DNA of 58,965 nucleotides from a virus. The DNA lies in IMG/VR virus record IMGVR_UViG_3300012210_000001, positions 1 through 58,965 of that record. One strand, 5' to 3'. The translations under genes were made by a program, and so were the position numbers. A model generated the notes under the pieces. It was not told the DNA's origin. It was given only the letters and a program-made list of their open reading frames with translations, and made no database searches. Positions within the stretch are counted from its first letter, which is position 1, and every line of letters begins with the position of its first letter. This document shows positions 6,250 through 36,986 of this stretch, piece after piece.

Positions 6250-6267
6250 TTGAATGGAGAGAGAGAT

Positions 6268-7491
6268 ATGCACATTTTACCGAAATCGTCCCATGCTAAA
6301 CACATCATTAAAGCGTGGATTGATAATGTTCCGATAGATAATAAAGCGATTGAACAGCTTAATAATGTGGCTAGTCTGCCCTTTATTCACAAGCATATTG
6401 CGGTTATGCCCGATGTGCATTGGGGTATGGGGGCAACGGTGGGCAGCGTGATTCCTACTATTGGGGCAGTAGTTCCAGCAGCGGTAGGGGTTGATGTAGG
6501 ATGCGGCATGATTGCTGTCAAACTCACTTTACAAGCCTCTCAATTACCCGATAATCTGCATAATTTACGATGCGCTATTGAAGCGGCCATTCCGCATGGA
6601 CGTACCGATAATGGTGGCGTAAATGATAAGGGGGCGCGCAGCAAGCCTATTTGCGGAGAGAGTAACTCTGAATTAATACCTGATCTAGACTTAATTTTAG
6701 AAAAACATTCCTATCTTCATAAATGGAATACTGAGCGTGCATTTAGACACATGGGGACATTAGGGGGCGGCAATCATTTTATCGAATTGTGTTTAGATGA
6801 AAATCAAAACGTATGGCTTATGTTGCATTCGGGTTCACGGGGTATTGGCAATGCGCTGGGTTCTTATTTTATTGAACGTGCTAAAAAAGATATGCAGCGA
6901 TGGTTTATTAATTTACCGGATGAAGATTTAGCTTATATTCCTGAAGGCTCCGACTTATTCAATGACTATATTGAAGCCATCACATGGGCGCAGTTATATG
7001 CTGCTGCCAATCGAAAAACAATGCTTCATTATACTATGTTGGCAATTAAAGATGAACTCAATATTCACTGCTCCATAGTTGAGATGCCTATTATTAATTG
7101 CCATCATAACTATGTGACCAAAGAAAATCATTTTGGCAAGAATGTTTGGATTACCCGTAAAGGGGCCGTGCGCGCTCGCCTCGGCGATTTTGGTATAATT
7201 CCGGGGTCTATGGGCGCTAAAAGCTTTATTGTTAAAGGATTGGGAAATCCTGATTCTTTTCACAGTTGTTCTCACGGTGCTGGTCGGGTCATGAGCCGTA
7301 CCCAAGCCATTCGAGAGGTTAGCATGGAGCAGCATTTACTCGACACAATGGGAGTGGAATGTCGAAAAGATGCAAGTGTTTTAGATGAAACACCCAGAGC
7401 TTACAAAGATATTGAGGCTGTAATGGCGGCTCAAGCGGATTTGGTGGAGATAGTCCATACTTTAAAACAAATCCTTTGTATTAAAGGATAG
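6268..7491 (+). CDS. rtcB: RtcB family tRNA-splicing/repair RNA ligase
   Basis: A 407-residue RtcB. It joins 2',3'-cyclic phosphate and 5'-OH RNA ends using GTP and Mn2+. Visible motifs are VGVDVGCGM near residues 72-80 (metal-binding Asp and Cys), GGGNHFIEL near 165, LHSGSRG near 190, and SHGAGR near 335-340 with His336 in the guanylylated-histidine position. The length matches the family. The ATG at 6268 follows a GGAGAGAGAG RBS; an upstream TTG frame extension is unlikely. Its position directly after tRNA-Thr suggests repair of tRNAs cut by host anticodon nucleases. Confidence 0.95.
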   Translation: MHILPKSSHAKHIIKAWIDNVPIDNKAIEQLNNVASLPFIHKHIAVMPDVHWGMGATVGSVIPTIGAVVPAAVGVDVGCGMIAVKLTLQASQLPDNLHNLRCAIEAAIPHGRTDNGGVNDKGARSKPICGESNSELIPDLDLILEKHSYLHKWNTERAFRHMGTLGGGNHFIELCLDENQNVWLMLHSGSRGIGNALGSYFIERAKKDMQRWFINLPDEDLAYIPEGSDLFNDYIEAITWAQLYAAANRKTMLHYTMLAIKDELNIHCSIVEMPIINCHHNYVTKENHFGKNVWITRKGAVRARLGDFGIIPGSMGAKSFIVKGLGNPDSFHSCSHGAGRVMSRTQAIREVSMEQHLLDTMGVECRKDASVLDETPRAYKDIEAVMAAQADLVEIVHTLKQILCIKG

Positions 7492-14125: not shown

Positions 14126-14362
14126 TTATGTTTCAACCATAGGCCCCTTCTCTTCTTTATAGTCAGTCCCCGGAATGCAGCCTTCGTTCTCATCGAGTAT
14201 TCTCCAGAATACCTCTTCTCGATGAATAGCTACGCTCTTAGGTGCTTCTATTCCCAATCTGACTTGATTGCCTTTAACCCCCAATATTTGCATTTTACTG
14301 AGACTCCCATCGGGTAGAATCTGATAAATAGATTCCCCAATGCGCCGGGTTAATACAAGCAT
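14126..14362 (-). CDS. csrA: CsrA/RsmA-family RNA-binding regulator
   Basis: 78 residues opening [12 protein letters not shown] with [18 protein letters not shown] and [12 protein letters not shown], the full CsrA signature. The RNA-contacting Leu4 and the Arg of HRE are kept. CsrA dimers bind GGA motifs in mRNA leaders and alter translation or stability. This copy has a slightly longer loop after strand 1 and a 20-residue acidic tail. It abuts the ATPase gene (stop at 14363), so the two are coupled. It may redirect host CsrA-controlled traits or regulate phage mRNAs. Confidence 0.95.
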
Positions 14363-15339: not shown

Positions 15340-16038
15340 TTAATGACATTCATTTAATAATTCGATTAATTTAGCCGCTTGTGCTATTCTGATTCTTTCT
15401 CTAGCATAAGCAGCATCAGCATCAGCAGCATAAGCAGCAGCAGCAGCAGCAGCATCAGCAGCAGCATCAGCAGCAGCATCAGCAGCATCAGCAGCATCAG
15501 CAGCAGCATCAGCAGCATAAGCATAAGCATAAGCATAAGCATAAGCAGGAGCAGATTTTCGGGCTTCCAACCATTCTTGAGTGGAAATTATTCTGTTTTG
15601 AGAATATAAATCTGCAATTTTCTGAATTGCATTTCTATTCATATTTGTTCTTGCATACTGAATAACTCCATATTCTTTATTTATTAATAGCCATATCGCA
15701 AATTTAGGCCAAACTGTCTTTAAAATAGCGCCCACATGAATTGCGGATAAGAATTGTCCGGGCCAAAGCTTGGCATGGTCTAATGGTAATCCTTCAAATA
15801 TTCCGTCTTCTAGTCTTGCTAATAGTCTTGGAATACCTAGTTGAATTTCATATTGAGCATGAATTGAACCAGAACAATCATTCTGCCCCATGTCAAGAGT
15901 GCATCCAACTGCACAGCCTTTTCCATTTTCCCAATAGAAACCCTTTTTAATCTCATCTGCTATTCTATGCCCTTCGACACGTGCCAAAAATTTATCTTTA
16001 ATAGCTTGATCGTTATGATAAGCCCTCAAATTTTCCAT
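15340..16038 (-). CDS. Phage protein with Ala/Asp/Tyr repeat tract
   Basis: 232 residues. The start at 16038 (MENLRAYHNDQ) has GGAGG at 8 bases; an ATG at 16044 is too close to it. The N-terminal about 150 residues (KGCAVGCTLDMGQNDCSGS, GIPRLLARLEDGIFEGLP) belong to a conserved phage and bacterial family of unknown function. A low-complexity AYAYA/ADAADAA tract near residues 165-210 follows, encoded by a CAG-rich microsatellite, and then a short basic helix. Confidence 0.7.
   Translation of the reverse strand: MENLRAYHNDQAIKDKFLARVEGHRIADEIKKGFYWENGKGCAVGCTLDMGQNDCSGSIHAQYEIQLGIPRLLARLEDGIFEGLPLDHAKLWPGQFLSAIHVGAILKTVWPKFAIWLLINKEYGVIQYARTNMNRNAIQKIADLYSQNRIISTQEWLEARKSAPAYAYAYAYAYAADAAADAADAADAAADAAADAAAAAAAYAADADAAYARERIRIAQAAKLIELLNECH
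15402..15547. repeat. Imperfect (CAGCAT/CAGCAG/CATAAG)n microsatellite
   Basis: About 145 bases of trinucleotide-type repeats (AGCATCAGCAGC and AGCATA units) lie in frame inside the gene at 15340, encoding Ala, Asp and Tyr. Such a tract can change length by slippage in multiples of three without a frameshift. It is also far richer in GC than its surroundings. Confidence 0.9.
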
Positions 16039-16040
16039 AA

Positions 16041-16277
16041 TCATTCCTCCAAAAGTTGTTGAATCGTTTCATCACTGGAGACATTGAATTGATTCCATGC
16101 CTCCACTAATCCATAATTATCTGCAAATTCATCAATGCGCCGTCTTAATTCTCTGAGTTCATTTTCAGTTTGTATATGTTCATAATCAGCGACACTTAAT
16201 CCTGCTTTTATTTCACTCATCATGCCTTGTTGATGGCGAATGACTTCGATTAATGTTTGAATGTCTTTATTTTCCAT
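16041..16277 (-). CDS. Small acidic helical protein
   Basis: 78 residues, mostly amphipathic helix (RELRRRIDEFADNYGLVEAW), preceded by GGAGGAAG. It overlaps the upstream gene end by 11 bases. Its stop at 16041 lies 3 bases before the next gene start. No family is recognised. Confidence 0.6.
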   Translation of the reverse strand: MENKDIQTLIEVIRHQQGMMSEIKAGLSVADYEHIQTENELRELRRRIDEFADNYGLVEAWNQFNVSSDETIQQLLEE

Positions 16278-22062: not shown

Positions 22063-22250
22063 GATAGCCTCCTTATTAAGCGTTCGCATATATTAAGTTT
22101 GCCTAATACAATTGCCATTTGCTTGTCTTTTGGCATTTCTCCAAAACCAACAGCAAGACGGCTATAGGCTATATCATTAGTAAGTCCTGCTAATTCTTGC
22201 TCTAGCTTTTGTATTTCTTCTTTTATTACATCCACCGCATTATCATTCAT
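22059..22250 (-). CDS. Small helical protein
   Basis: 63 residues forming a coiled-coil type helix pair (EEIQKLEQELAGLTNDIA). The stop overlaps the next start (ATGA) and the start overlaps the previous stop. No family is recognised. Confidence 0.6.
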   Translation of the reverse strand: MNDNAVDVIKEEIQKLEQELAGLTNDIAYSRLAVGFGEMPKDKQMAIVLGKLNICERLIRRLS

Positions 22251-22543
22251 TTCAATAACTCCTCAAATTCTTTGATTAAACATTCAATAGACTCTATATG
22301 CCCAATTTCTCGGCTCATCATAACCCGATACTCGGCCCCTTCTTTAAACTTGTCGCACGTCCTATATTTGGCCGCTATGGCAAGTTTTGATTCCTGATAA
22401 GCTTTCAATAAGCTTTTAGCCATTTGTAAGCCAGTCTCTAATAATGATTTATTAGCAGATGGTTTTATTGTGACCATAGGCACGTGACTGTCCGCCGCTC
22501 TCATAGCAATCATGGCTTTGGATGGTCTTCCTAACTTCTTCAT
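22247..22543 (-). CDS. Basic helical protein
   Basis: 98 residues beginning MKKLGRPSKAMIAMRAADS; the GRPSK motif is AT-hook-like and could touch DNA. The rest is helical and charged. It overlaps the insertion-bearing CsrA-like gene upstream by ATGA, so the two are made together. Confidence 0.6.
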   Translation of the reverse strand: MKKLGRPSKAMIAMRAADSHVPMVTIKPSANKSLLETGLQMAKSLLKAYQESKLAIAAKYRTCDKFKEGAEYRVMMSREIGHIESIECLIKEFEELLK

Positions 22544-22863
22544 GTGTTATTCTCCTGACGTAGTAAGTCTCTCTCAATCAGTTCACAGCGTAAAATATGA
22601 ATATCACGCGGTGCGCTAATGCCAATGTTGGCAAAATTAGTCATTTTATGGTTTTTAAACCGCCACCCCAGAAAATTAAGCGATATATCCGGCATAATTG
22701 AATAGGGTTCTCTTAGATTTAAGTAAAAATCTCGACAAGGGATATCGGAATCTTTAATATATAACTTTGCCGATATCCCATGACCTGATTCACCCGTCAT
22801 AATAATGAGAATTCGCGAATCAATGACGAATCCTTCGCCCACTTGTCTCCCTAAGCACAGCAT
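22540..22863 (-). CDS. CsrA-like protein with a ~50-residue central insertion
   Basis: 107 residues. The start MLCLGRQVGEGFVIDSRILI matches CsrA strand 1-2, and the end NIGISAPRDIHILRCELIERD matches CsrA strands 4-5 plus helix, keeping Leu4 and the Arg equivalent to Arg44. Residues about 28-78 (LYIKDSDIPCRDFYLNL onward) are absent from normal CsrA, replacing the loop/strand 3 region, and the HREE motif is LRCE. This suggests a remodelled RNA-binding dimer, or a protein that pairs with host CsrA. It lies in an ATGA-linked chain. Confidence 0.75.
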   Translation of the reverse strand: MLCLGRQVGEGFVIDSRILIIMTGESGHGISAKLYIKDSDIPCRDFYLNLREPYSIMPDISLNFLGWRFKNHKMTNFANIGISAPRDIHILRCELIERDLLRQENNT

Positions 22864-23063
22864 TAATTATTCTCCAGATAATGCTGATATTTCTTAAGCA
22901 TATTCACGATCTTAATAATATCATTGGTTTCAAAGTTATTAGCCCAATTCACCGGAATTTGTGATAAAATTCCATGTAAAACGTGGGGTTCTTCTTTAAA
23001 GCCGCATTTATCCCGGATCATTAAATATTGTTTTTGACCCGCATCTATCGTCATTTTCTTCAT
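22863..23063 (-). CDS. Small hypothetical protein
   Basis: A 66-residue helical protein with RBS AAGGAG. The stop shares a base with the start of the CsrA-like gene, so the two are likely coupled. No motif. Confidence 0.55.
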   Translation of the reverse strand: MKKMTIDAGQKQYLMIRDKCGFKEEPHVLHGILSQIPVNWANNFETNDIIKIVNMLKKYQHYLENN

Positions 23064-23360: not shown

Positions 23361-23401
23361 AATCAAGACGTACCGTACGTTTAATGGAAATTATTTATTC
23401 A
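23361..23401 (-). promoter_or_regulatory. Variant GTAC operator/promoter (site D)
   Basis: GTACCGTACGTTTA (23370-23383) and GAAATTATTTATTCA (23387-23401, 14 of 15 matches to the motif at sites A-C) are present. The half-site spacing is shorter than at A-C and the -10 (TTGATT) is weak, so promoter function is less certain. The leader also contains CAACACCGTGTCA at 23314-23326. Confidence 0.45.
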
Positions 23402-23567
23402 TTTCCTCTGGATTTAATACATCTTCTTCCGATATAAAGGTTAATTTCGCAACCGCTTGACCACGGCGCATTATAATTGTCTCCTCATGACCAAACGCTG
23501 CTTTATTAATATAGCGTGAAAAATTTTCACGCATTTGAACTGACGTAGCGATTGCTTTCTTTTTCAT
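23391..23567 (-). CDS. Phd/YefM-family antitoxin, orphan
   Basis: 58 residues. ATSVQMRENFSRYINKAAFG then EETIIMRRGQAVAKLTFISE is the Phd/YefM N-terminal domain (DNA-binding and dimerising), but the toxin-binding C-terminus is very short. A GTG at 23579 is also in frame. No RelE- or Doc-like toxin is adjacent. It may neutralise a host toxin or act as a repressor. Confidence 0.75.
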   Translation of the reverse strand: MKKKAIATSVQMRENFSRYINKAAFGHEETIIMRRGQAVAKLTFISEEDVLNPEEMNK

Positions 23568-23571
23568 AAAA

Positions 23572-24141
23572 TTACTCACTTTTTTGTTGTTTTAACCACC
23601 AATACAAACGCATCATGGCGCGGCAATCAGCCATCGCATTATGTGCATTCTCAAACTTTTCTTTAAATGCAAATTCATACGCTTCACTCAATTTTGGGTT
23701 TTTCTTTTTACCCGCATGATTCAGCGGCATTCCGCCTATCTTACTGGCCTCTTGCATTGTGCAGTAAGGCACACATCCAATTGCGCCCCTCGCCCCCGCT
23801 TTGGATAAAGCAATGTCCGTCATGAATAAATCAAATCGGATATTGTGCGCGATAATGGTATGCGCCATCTTAGAAAATTCTACTAAAGCATTCAAAGCAT
23901 AACGCGGGATAACACCACACTTTTGAGCCATCTCAGTTGTAATGCCGTGGATAGCCACCATTTCAGGCGATATCATGCATCCCGGATTATTCAGAATAAC
24001 ATTTAAATTGCCCACCTCTTGCTGATTATCCGTCATTAGAATAGCTGCTAGCTGGACAATATAGGGTTGCTCAGGATGAATAGGGGATTCGCTGAATTTG
24101 GGAATTCCGGTGGTTTCGGTATCAATAAATAAATTAAGCAT
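23572..24141 (-). CDS. DnaQ-like 3'-5' exonuclease (DEDDh)
   Basis: 189 residues. Exo I FIDTETTG (Asp7, Glu9), Exo II AHNIRFD (Asp104) and Exo III HNAMADC (His167, Asp172) make a complete DEDDh active site. It is a stand-alone proofreading-type or DNA/RNA-trimming nuclease; no polymerase is present for it to serve, so it may work with the host polymerase. RBS GAGAGGAAG. Confidence 0.92.
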   Translation of the reverse strand: MLNLFIDTETTGIPKFSESPIHPEQPYIVQLAAILMTDNQQEVGNLNVILNNPGCMISPEMVAIHGITTEMAQKCGVIPRYALNALVEFSKMAHTIIAHNIRFDLFMTDIALSKAGARGAIGCVPYCTMQEASKIGGMPLNHAGKKKNPKLSEAYEFAFKEKFENAHNAMADCRAMMRLYWWLKQQKSE

Positions 24142-34678: not shown

Positions 34679-35515
34679 ATGACCATATTAATAAACTCAA
34701 TTCCCATTGAAAGTTTTAACTTTCCAGGTGGTGAATGTTCTGTAAAGATTCCTGAAATTTGCTTTGATAGGAATGCAATTACAGCTTATCTCTATTCTTC
34801 AAATGACATAATGAAATTGTTATTAACGGTTGATGCAATACGCCGAATTTATCCAATGGCTAAGATTACTTTAATTATTCCTTACTTTCCATATGCTAGA
34901 CAAGATAGAGTCTGTAATCAAGGAGAAGCTTTGAGTGTTAAAATAATGGCTAATCTAATTAATGGCTTGAATTGTGATGAAGTTATTATCTATGATCCGC
35001 ATTCTGACGTAACATCTGCATTGATTAATAATTGTCATACTGTCGATTCCTTGAAGTTAATTAATGGTAGTATATTATTCAATACTATTGAAGATGATCA
35101 AAATTTAATATTTATCTCTCCTGATAATGGAGCAGAAAAGAAAGTTAGAAATATAGCAAAATATTTTAATCGCCGTATGATATGTGCAACTAAAGTAAGG
35201 GATATAGCAACGGGTGAGATTATAGATACTCATATTATGTTGCGGGATCATATTATAGTTAATCCAAATCAAAATTTGCTCATTATTGATGATATTTGTG
35301 ATGGTGGAAGAACATTTATTGAAATTGCTAAGAAATTAGTAGCACAAAGACCAAAAGGTAATCTCTATCTGTATGTTACTCATGGCATATTTTCTAAAGG
35401 TTTAGACCCATTAAAAGAGTACTTCAATAAAGTATTTTGCTATCATACTATGTTGCCTTCAGATAGAATTGACCGAGATTTTTTAACTATTATTGGAGAG
35501 AGACATGCTGATTAA
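34679..35515 (+). CDS. PRPP-synthetase-like enzyme, candidate Adps of NARP1
   Basis: 278 residues. FPYARQDR near residue 70 and LLIIDDICDGGRTF near 200-213 are the ATP/substrate and PRPP-loop motifs of ribose-phosphate pyrophosphokinase (usual length about 315, so this is short). In NARP1 such proteins act as Adps, transferring pyrophosphate to ADP-ribose. Canonical PRPP synthesis from ribose-5-phosphate is the alternative. The gene overlaps the transferase downstream by 11 bases, so the two products are coupled. Confidence 0.85.
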   Translation: MTILINSIPIESFNFPGGECSVKIPEICFDRNAITAYLYSSNDIMKLLLTVDAIRRIYPMAKITLIIPYFPYARQDRVCNQGEALSVKIMANLINGLNCDEVIIYDPHSDVTSALINNCHTVDSLKLINGSILFNTIEDDQNLIFISPDNGAEKKVRNIAKYFNRRMICATKVRDIATGEIIDTHIMLRDHIIVNPNQNLLIIDDICDGGRTFIEIAKKLVAQRPKGNLYLYVTHGIFSKGLDPLKEYFNKVFCYHTMLPSDRIDRDFLTIIGERHAD

Positions 35516-36986
35516 TGCATTAAATGCAATTGATTTCTATAAAACTGATCATCGCAGACAATATCCGGCTGGCACAACAGAGGTATATGCTAACTTTACC
35601 CCGAGAAGTGATCATTATGCAAATATGGGAATTGATTTTGACCATCATATTATATTCTTTGGATTGCAATATTTTATTCTGGATTATCTAATCGGAAATT
35701 GGAGTCAAACATTCTTTCGTTTACGCAAAAGCGTAGCCATTTCTGCTTATAAAAGGCGCATGGATTTTGCATTAGGAGAAGATGCCATCCGTATGGAGCA
35801 TATTGAAGCGTTGCATGATCTAGGATATTTACCATTGAAAATTAAAGCACTTCCTGAAGGCACGCGAGTACCCATTGGTGTGCCAGTATTGACTATATTA
35901 AATACCCATCCTGATTTCTTCTGGCTGACTAATTATATTGAGTCTGTTTTATCTTGTTATTTGTGGAAACCAATTACTTCAGCCACTATTGCATTTCAAT
36001 ATAGAAAACTCTTGACTCAATATGCACTGAAAACGCATAGTTCTTTAGATTTTGTTCCATTTCAAGCGCATGATTTCTCTTTCAGGGGACTTAGTGGGCC
36101 TCAAGATGCAGCAAGTAGTGGAGCGGCTCATTTAACGTCTTTCGTAGGCACGGATACGGTTCTAGCAATAGATTTTCATGAATACTATTATGGTGCTGAT
36201 GCGGAAATAGAGTTAATCGGTTGTTCTGTTCCGGCTACTGAACATTCAGTAATGTGTATGGGCATGGAGGATGGAGAATTGAATACCTTTAGGCGACTAA
36301 TCAATGACATCTATCCATCCGGTATTGTCTCTATTGTCTCGGATACATGGGATTTCTGGAAAGTGATTACTGAATATACAGTAGAGCTTAAGCAAGATAT
36401 ATTGCAGCGTAATGGTAAGGTAGTATTAAGACCAGACTCAGGTGATCCCATTAAAATTATATGTGGTGATCCAGAAGCCGAAAAATACAGCCCTCAATAT
36501 AAAGGTGCTGTTCAATGTTTATGGGAAGTATTCGGTGGTGAAACTAGAAATGGATACAGTCATTTAGATAGTCATATTGGTTTAATCTATGGCGATTCAA
36601 TTACATTAGATCGTGCTGAAATGATTTTAAAGGGATTAGCTAATAAAGGATTCGCCTCCGATAATATCGTATTTGGAGTGGGTTCATATACCTACCAACA
36701 TGTAACGCGCGATACATTCGGATGGGCAGTAAAAACAACTAGTGGAAAGGTTGGTAATGAGCGTAGGGATATATTTAAAGACCCTAAAACAGATTCCGGG
36801 ACTAAGCGGTCAGCTAAGGGATTATTGAGAATAGATTATAATGAGCAGGGAAAACTTGCTTTATTTGATCAACAAACGCTTGAACAAGAGAATACTGGAA
36901 AATTAGAAACGATATTCTTGAATGGAAGCCTTAAGATTAGTACTACACTTCAAGAGATTAGAGAACGAATAAAGGAACAATTATGA
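35505..36986 (+). CDS. Nicotinamide phosphoribosyltransferase-like, candidate Namat of NARP1
   Basis: 493 residues. DFYKTDHRRQYPAGTTEVYA, HDFSFRGLSGPQDAASSGAA, VPATEHSVMCMG (His247 in the phospho-histidine position), VLRPDSGDP and FGVGSYTYQHVTRDTFGWA are the NAMPT signatures; the length is normal. GGAGAG precedes the ATG at 35505. With the upstream Prs-like enzyme it would make NMN, or in a NARP1 system NAD+ directly from ADP-ribose pyrophosphate and nicotinamide. No NMN adenylyltransferase is recognisable in the genome, which fits NARP1 or use of the host enzyme. Confidence 0.93.
   Translation: MLINALNAIDFYKTDHRRQYPAGTTEVYANFTPRSDHYANMGIDFDHHIIFFGLQYFILDYLIGNWSQTFFRLRKSVAISAYKRRMDFALGEDAIRMEHIEALHDLGYLPLKIKALPEGTRVPIGVPVLTILNTHPDFFWLTNYIESVLSCYLWKPITSATIAFQYRKLLTQYALKTHSSLDFVPFQAHDFSFRGLSGPQDAASSGAAHLTSFVGTDTVLAIDFHEYYYGADAEIELIGCSVPATEHSVMCMGMEDGELNTFRRLINDIYPSGIVSIVSDTWDFWKVITEYTVELKQDILQRNGKVVLRPDSGDPIKIICGDPEAEKYSPQYKGAVQCLWEVFGGETRNGYSHLDSHIGLIYGDSITLDRAEMILKGLANKGFASDNIVFGVGSYTYQHVTRDTFGWAVKTTSGKVGNERRDIFKDPKTDSGTKRSAKGLLRIDYNEQGKLALFDQQTLEQENTGKLETIFLNGSLKISTTLQEIRERIKEQL

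What the first reader, a model, noticed from the sequence alone, without database searches (positions are those of the whole stretch)
22540..22863. CsrA-like protein split by a ~50-residue insertion
Both ends carry CsrA strand motifs including Leu4 and the RNA-binding Arg, but the middle holds an unrelated segment with a Cys and aromatic residues, and HREE has become LRCE. A CsrA with an inserted module would be a new architecture, possibly binding a different RNA or titrating host CsrA.
Basis: partly seen in the sequence, partly recalled or inferred. Interest (0 to 1): 0.82.

Follow-up and report, generated by a model that had tools for sequence, protein, structure and literature searches.

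The report
Phage CsrA: probable one-piece double unit
A virus of bacteria carries a diverged copy of the RNA-binding regulator CsrA that looks less like a CsrA with a foreign piece inserted and more like two CsrA units fused head to tail, with one of the two RNA-binding sites kept and the other worn away.

Summary
The gene is real: 22540-22863 (-), 107 aa, Pfam CsrA E 3.2e-9, with Leu4, Arg6 and the RNA-binding Arg (R92) kept and HREE changed to LRCE. But the middle is not unrelated to CsrA. Residues 52-66 (EPYSIMPDISLNFLG) match CsrA positions 10-24, which the N-terminal part already supplies once. Placing the break between positions 29 and 30 explains about 10 bits less than readings that use this second block.

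A relaxed pattern scan of viral contigs found one other phage protein (L173, 119 aa) that is plainly two CsrA units in tandem: positions 1-37 then 9-52, a 40% identical internal repeat, 0 of 5000 shuffles as good. It has lost beta5 of unit 1 and beta1 of unit 2, which together form one RNA site, and kept the pair that forms the other. A CsrA profile reads L173 as "split", just as it does the window protein.

Best explanation (about 0.55): a single-chain CsrA pseudo-dimer with one RNA-binding pocket. Main rival (0.27): an insertion in the beta2-beta3 turn, the site used by RsmN. No RNA binding was tested. AlphaFold models are low-confidence. The middles of the two tandem proteins are not detectably alike.

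The parts
22540..22863 (-). CsrA-like gene, 107 aa, including stop codon
   Evidence: ORF; Pfam CsrA E 3.2e-9 in two stretches; coding frame favoured
22777..22863 (-). residues 1-29: unit 1, CsrA positions 1-29 (beta1-beta3), with Leu4 and Arg6
   Evidence: Pfam 1-29; residues 15-29 in fixed register p 0.009
22711..22776 (-). residues 30-51: diverged joint, proposed remnant of unit 1 beta4-beta5; strands predicted at 29-36 and 42-49
   Evidence: no detectable CsrA similarity (p 0.32); strands in both low-confidence AF2 models
22666..22710 (-). residues 52-66: second copy of CsrA positions 10-24 (beta2-beta3), start of proposed unit 2
   Evidence: tblastn 52-104 against CsrA 10-55, 33.9 bits; search-wide p 0.001-0.02
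22639..22665 (-). residues 67-75: enlarged beta3-beta4 loop of unit 2 (6 extra residues)
   Evidence: alignments
22543..22638 (-). residues 76-107: unit 2 beta4-beta5-alpha, with Arg92 and Glu94
   Evidence: Pfam 30-50; helix 93-106 and pLDDT about 76 over this part of the model
22872..22875 (-). GGAG, probable ribosome-binding site of the gene
   Evidence: sequence, leader printed
22863..23063 (-). upstream 66-aa gene overlapping the start (TAATG); no family match
22247..22543 (-). downstream 98-aa gene overlapping the stop (ATGA); no family match
14126..14362 (-). ordinary full-length csrA of the same phage (78 aa), the natural comparison
   Evidence: Pfam E 4.1e-18 over 1-51; PHROG 9500 E 8.5e-20

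Best explanation
The protein is a natural single-chain CsrA: two CsrA units fused head to tail and diverged. Unit 1 (residues 1 to about 51) gives beta1 with Leu4 and Arg6; unit 2 (about 52-107) lacks its own beta1 and gives beta5 with Arg92 and Glu94. In the ordinary CsrA dimer each RNA pocket is made by beta1 of one chain and beta5 of the other. Here beta1 of unit 1 and beta5 of unit 2 would make one pocket within a single chain, while the second pocket (beta5 of unit 1 plus beta1 of unit 2) has been lost; that lost pocket is the 'insert'. Inferred function: a monovalent GGA-binding regulator that cannot bridge two sites on an RNA and should not exchange subunits with host CsrA. It would compete for single CsrA sites in phage or host RNAs and so damp repression by bivalent CsrA (the host's, or the phage's own at 14126-14362). 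Shown: CsrA homology of both ends, a second beta2-beta3 block, and a clear tandem protein in another phage. Inferred: fold, single pocket, RNA binding, biological role.
For: Pfam CsrA match in two colinear stretches. Residues 52-104 align to CsrA 10-55 by tblastn at 33.9 bits; 52-66 against positions 10-24 search-wide p 0.001-0.02. Bits beyond the shared ends: break at 29/30 0.4, insertion in beta2-beta3 10.1, tandem 11.4 (before gap costs). Both AF2 runs put strands at 18-26, 29-36 and 42/43-49, roughly where beta3, beta4 and beta5 of a first unit would lie (low confidence). L173: two CsrA units, positions 1-37 and 9-52, E 2.5e-11 and 4.7e-12, one 119-aa frame; internal repeat 0 of 5000 shuffles, with beta5 of unit 1 and beta1 of unit 2 degenerate. 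The CsrA profile reports L173 as split, just as the window protein. Pocket geometry: PMC7652899 and PMC3791407.
Against: Residues 30-51 show no similarity to CsrA beta4-beta5 (p 0.32) and 43-51 none to beta1 (p 0.65). A direct self-comparison of the two halves is not significant (p 0.12-0.21). The middles of the window protein and L173 are not detectably alike (p 0.25 and 0.67), so common origin of the two tandems is not shown. Tandem beats a beta2-beta3 insertion by only 1.3 bits. AF2 mean pLDDT 46 and 56. H43 and E45 of the HREE motif are Leu and Cys here; H43A weakens binding in RsmQ.
Confidence: 0.55

Rival explanations
1. A CsrA with a ~43-residue insertion in the turn between beta2 and beta3 (residues about 15-58) plus a 6-residue longer beta3-beta4 loop. 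RsmN of Pseudomonas aeruginosa carries a 16-residue insertion at the same place. It would still be a homodimer with two RNA pockets, and the insert a new surface or a re-routing element.
For: MAFFT places the gap here; residues 59-66 match beta3 at p 0.0001 in fixed place; small insertions at this turn occur in the phage's ordinary CsrA and in L014 and L046; RsmN precedent (PMC3791407) and RsmN-like genes L171 and L172; VIA-align aligns the model to RsmN 4kji at Z 2.8.
Against: Residues 10-14 are followed by a fair match to beta3 at 15-29 (p 0.009), which this reading treats as chance; the insert is predicted as strands, not a helix; a protein of twice CsrA length has a clear tandem precedent (L173).
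Confidence: 0.27
2. One reading: an unrelated ~50-residue module inserted between positions 29 and 30, in the beta3-beta4 loop.
For: Pfam alignment boundaries 1-29 and 30-50.
Against: It ignores the beta2-beta3 block at 52-66 and explains about 10 bits less than the other readings. The profile splits the evident tandem L173 in the same way. No family or solved structure matches the middle.
Confidence: 0.06
3. A decayed CsrA that no longer binds RNA, either drifting or kept as a decoy that pairs with host or phage CsrA chains and disables them.
For: LRCE for HREE, Gly5 for Thr/Ser5, no close relatives; plasmid RsmQ forms heterodimers with host Rsm proteins (PMC9928087).
Against: Leu4, Arg6, Arg92 and Glu94 are kept while the rest diverged; open frame with codon bias and overlapping neighbours.
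Confidence: 0.12

Closest known systems
CsrA/RsmA family (PF02599)
   Same: Both ends match; Leu4, Arg6, R44 and E46 equivalents present.
   Different: 107 aa instead of about 60; second beta2-beta3 block; H43 and E45 replaced.
RsmN (RsmF) of Pseudomonas aeruginosa
   Same: Extra residues may enter between beta2 and beta3, and the chain is re-routed while the RNA-binding sheet is kept (PMC3791407).
   Different: RsmN has a 16-residue helical insert and no C-terminal helix; here the extra stretch is about 43 residues, predicted as strands, and a C-terminal helix is predicted.
Tandem CsrA of viral contig IMGVR_UViG_3300007351_000200 (L173:98-457)
   Same: Two CsrA blocks in one chain; unit 2 starts at position 9-10; beta5 of unit 1 and beta1 of unit 2 degenerate.
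   Different: L173 keeps unit 1 beta4 and a canonical VHRQE; its middle has no detectable similarity to the window protein's; no published description found.
Laboratory CsrA dimers with one R44A pocket (Mercante 2009, as reviewed in PMC7652899)
   Same: One working RNA pocket per dimer is what the tandem model predicts.
   Different: Made artificially from two chains; full glgC repression needed both pockets.
RsmQ, plasmid-borne CsrA (PMC9928087)
   Same: CsrA homologue on a mobile element acting on host regulation.
   Different: Forms homo- and heterodimers of separate chains and models as an ordinary Rsm protein.

Membership tests
CsrA/RsmA (PF02599) | profile score over the curated cut-off | tested here: met
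   37.1 bits against 27, E 3.2e-9; each half alone is below the cut-off
CsrA/RsmA (PF02599) | beta1 residues Leu4 and Arg6 | tested here: met
   MLCLGRQVGE, alignment A1
CsrA/RsmA (PF02599) | beta5 R44 and the E46 salt-bridge partner | tested here: met
   R92 and E94; H43 and E45 not kept
CsrA/RsmA (PF02599) | five strands and helix, interlocked homodimer | tested here: inconclusive
   AF2 pLDDT 46 and 56; best VIA-align match RsmA 2bti_B, Z 3.3, rmsd 2.1, 48 residues
CsrA/RsmA (PF02599) | binding of GGA motifs | not testable with these tools
   needs an RNA-binding assay
RsmN type | extra residues between beta2 and beta3 | tested here: inconclusive
   compatible alignment, but the tandem reading fits slightly better
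RsmN type | insert is an alpha helix | tested here: inconclusive
   strands predicted in both low-confidence models
RsmN type | no C-terminal helix after beta5 | tested here: not met
   15 residues follow R92, and a helix is predicted at 93-106
Tandem CsrA as in L173 (no published family) | CsrA beta2-beta3 positions present twice in one chain | tested here: met
   residues 10-29 and 52-66; the first beta3 match is only p 0.009
Tandem CsrA as in L173 (no published family) | beta5 of unit 1 and beta1 of unit 2 degenerate, the other pair kept | tested here: met
   38-50 against beta5 p 0.19, 43-51 against beta1 p 0.65; ends kept
Tandem CsrA as in L173 (no published family) | recognisable beta4 in unit 1 | tested here: inconclusive
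   no sequence similarity (p 0.32-0.45); strand predicted at 29-36
Tandem CsrA as in L173 (no published family) | shared descent with L173 | tested here: inconclusive
   middles not alike beyond chance

The most novel reading that the evidence does not exclude
Phages have repeatedly or anciently turned the two-site CsrA homodimer into a single-chain, one-pocket regulator that cannot bridge RNA sites or mix with host subunits, and use it as a clean competitor of host CsrA during infection.
Probability: 0.3. Interest if true: 0.75.

Novelty: new variant of a known kind. Interest (0 to 1): 0.57.

Why it matters
CsrA is known as a symmetric two-pocket dimer, and its ability to bridge two sites on one RNA is central to strong repression. 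A natural one-chain, one-pocket version would allow a direct test of what bridging contributes in cells, and would show a way for a phage to act on the host Csr network without forming mixed dimers. It is also a caution: a tandem protein whose inner site has decayed looks to a profile search exactly like a protein split by an insertion.

Tried and rejected
Close homologues by peptide patterns or tblastn: none in viral contigs, phages or plasmids. Strict architecture pattern: none in viral contigs or 84,980 species genomes; this pattern finds only 38 of 163 ordinary CsrA loci, so the negative is weak. Relaxed ATGTTR pattern: one viral hit, L173. Both relaxed patterns (together matching 139 of 163): none in 398 Pseudomonadota genomes. 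All these patterns cover only one range of spacings. Legionellales match L169: antisense to a 984-aa gene with three stops, chance. Match L168: chance, one stop. PF02599 in 100 Pseudomonadota genomes: no split or tandem match listed. Middle alone against Pfam and PDB: nothing. Foldseek against PDB and BFVD: nothing significant. VIA-align of the single-sequence model: only unrelated beta folds, Z under 5. Related phages through terminase, portal and exonuclease: only fragments, which do not carry the gene or do not reach it. A csrB/rsmZ-type RNA in the window: none over Rfam cut-offs. First profile test with badly gapped columns gave no signal and was redone.

Full report
The observation. The window (58,965 bases, a virus record in IMG/VR) has a 107-aa ORF at 22540-22863 on the minus strand. 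It overlaps its neighbours as TAATG and ATGA, has GGAG upstream, and its frame is favoured by the codon usage of the rest of the phage. Pfam CsrA matches at E 3.2e-9, in two colinear stretches, 1-29 and 30-50 of 53. Leu4, Arg6, the R44 equivalent (R92) and the E46 equivalent (E94) are present; HREE reads LRCE. The phage also has an ordinary CsrA at 14126-14362.

The middle. The break between model positions 29 and 30 is the profile's choice, not the best account of the sequence. MAFFT with 33 other CsrAs put the large gap between beta2 and beta3, and tblastn aligned residues 52-104 with CsrA 10-55 at 33.9 bits: EPYSIMPDISLNFLGWRF against ETITIGPEITVTVLGVK. Using CsrA profiles built from the loci fetched here, residues 52-66 fit positions 10-24 with search-wide p of 0.001 to 0.02, depending on profile, window width and null. 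Residues 15-29, continuing unit 1 without a gap, fit positions 15-29 at p 0.009. Positions 10-29 are therefore probably present twice. A statistic joining both blocks scores 12.0 bits, reached by none of 20,000 shuffles and none of 1,494 other 64-residue segments of the window, whose maximum is 4.1 bits. It was defined after seeing the alignment and most of it comes from residues 52-66. Beyond the shared ends, a break at 29/30 gains 0.4 bits, an insertion in the beta2-beta3 turn 10.1, a tandem 11.4. Sequence alone rejects the first but hardly separates the other two.

Evidence against over-reading. Residues 30-51 do not resemble CsrA beta4-beta5 (p 0.32), 43-51 do not resemble beta1 (p 0.65), and the two halves of the protein compared with each other are not significantly alike (p 0.12 to 0.21).

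A clear tandem elsewhere. A pattern built only from CsrA's conserved ends with a longer middle, run on viral contigs, returned one locus, L173. Its 119-aa protein reads MLILTRYVGEKIMIGDDLAIEVVDATPSRGSMLVKLGLSAP-TCPLDIMSKITTPIYS-GERLYFGKDIFVEVVDAYPYRNRIQIRLGIEAPRTVTVHRQEIW... (dashes mark the units). Pfam finds CsrA twice: positions 1-37 at E 2.5e-11 and 8-52 at E 4.7e-12 in one open frame. The internal repeat is 14 of 35 identical, better than all of 5000 shuffles. The contig carries DNA polymerase, clamp loader and a MazG-like gene, so it is a phage. Unit 1 has lost beta5 with R44, and unit 2 has lost beta1 with L4 and R6. The CsrA profile used here reports L173 as split, 1-25 and 31-56, just as it does the window protein. 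Tandem CsrA with a decayed inner joint and 'CsrA with an insert' therefore look the same in such a search. The middles of L173 and the window protein are not alike beyond chance (p 0.25, 0.67), so L173 is a precedent for the architecture and not proof of shared descent.

Structural logic. In RsmA the sheets are beta5A-beta2B-beta3B-beta4B-beta1A and its twin (PMC3791407), and each RNA surface is made of beta1 and beta5 of opposing monomers (PMC7652899). If two units are fused, beta1 of unit 1 and beta5 of unit 2 make one surface; beta5 of unit 1 and beta1 of unit 2 make the other. In both proteins exactly the second pair is degenerate. Once fused, one pocket can be lost without losing the other, which would explain why both outer ends stay conserved while the middle drifts. 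In an insertion model the conserved ends are equally expected, so this argument supports but does not decide.

Models. AlphaFold2 gave mean pLDDT 46 (single sequence) and 56 (with CsrA rows). Both place strands at 18-26, 29-36 and 42/43-49, near where a first unit would have beta3, beta4 and beta5. In the second model the C-terminal third is better (pLDDT about 76) with a helix at 93-106, but the alignment itself pushes that part towards CsrA. VIA-align ranks RsmA 2bti_B first (Z 3.3, rmsd 2.1, 48 residues) and RsmN 4kji third (Z 2.8, model 42-96). This fits a CsrA-type fold but is weak.

How it probably works. A one-chain CsrA with one pocket would bind single GGA sites, could not bridge two sites, and would have little reason to pair with other CsrA chains. 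In E. coli, both pockets of the dimer are needed for full repression of glgC (Mercante 2009, as reviewed in PMC7652899). The likeliest effect is therefore competition with bivalent CsrA at selected phage or host RNAs, weakening rather than copying it. The plasmid protein RsmQ shows that mobile elements do act on host Rsm networks, though by ordinary dimers and heterodimers (PMC9928087). The loss of the His and first Glu of HREE leaves affinity and specificity open. Apart from the cited papers, this paragraph is inference.

Rarity. Ordinary CsrA is found in many phages and plasmids (PMC7366521). None of the PF02599 matches listed in 100 Pseudomonadota genomes is split or doubled, nor is any other CsrA ORF among the 175 loci held, and relaxed patterns found no long-middle CsrA in 398 Pseudomonadota genomes. 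No held paper mentions a tandem or double-domain CsrA (open-access library only). The searches have limited sensitivity and one range of spacings.

Verdict. It is a new variant of a known kind: most likely a single-chain, one-pocket CsrA, with an RsmN-like insertion as the serious rival.

Noticed in passing
L173:98-457 (IMGVR_UViG_3300007351_000200): Clear tandem CsrA-CsrA protein in a phage next to a MazG-like gene, DNA polymerase and clamp loader; the best starting point for studying this architecture.
   Followed up: partly
34679-36986 (+): Overlapping genes for a ribose-phosphate pyrophosphokinase-like and a nicotinamide phosphoribosyltransferase-like protein, the gene pair of phage NAD+ restoring pathways that counter NAD-depleting defences (that role from general knowledge).
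   Followed up: no
23391-23579 (-): Phd/YefM-like antitoxin (Pfam E 8e-6, below cut-off) with no evident toxin beside it.
   Followed up: no
6250-7491 (+): RtcB RNA ligase (E 1.4e-126) directly downstream of tRNA-Thr, in a phage with three tRNA genes; possible tRNA repair.
   Followed up: no
15340-16044 (-): 234-aa protein with an Ala/Asp/Tyr repeat (AYAYAYAYAADAAADAA...) near its C-terminus.
   Followed up: no
L170:502-699 (-), Legionellaceae MAG: Strongly diverged CsrA (MDIVTIDFEEPLVLSVNNEAVRVV...GVAAPRSVKVHREEVY) that has lost the usual beta1 motif but keeps HREE.
   Followed up: no
L171, L172: RsmN-like CsrA proteins with extra residues between beta2 and beta3 in two Pseudomonadota genomes.
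   Followed up: no
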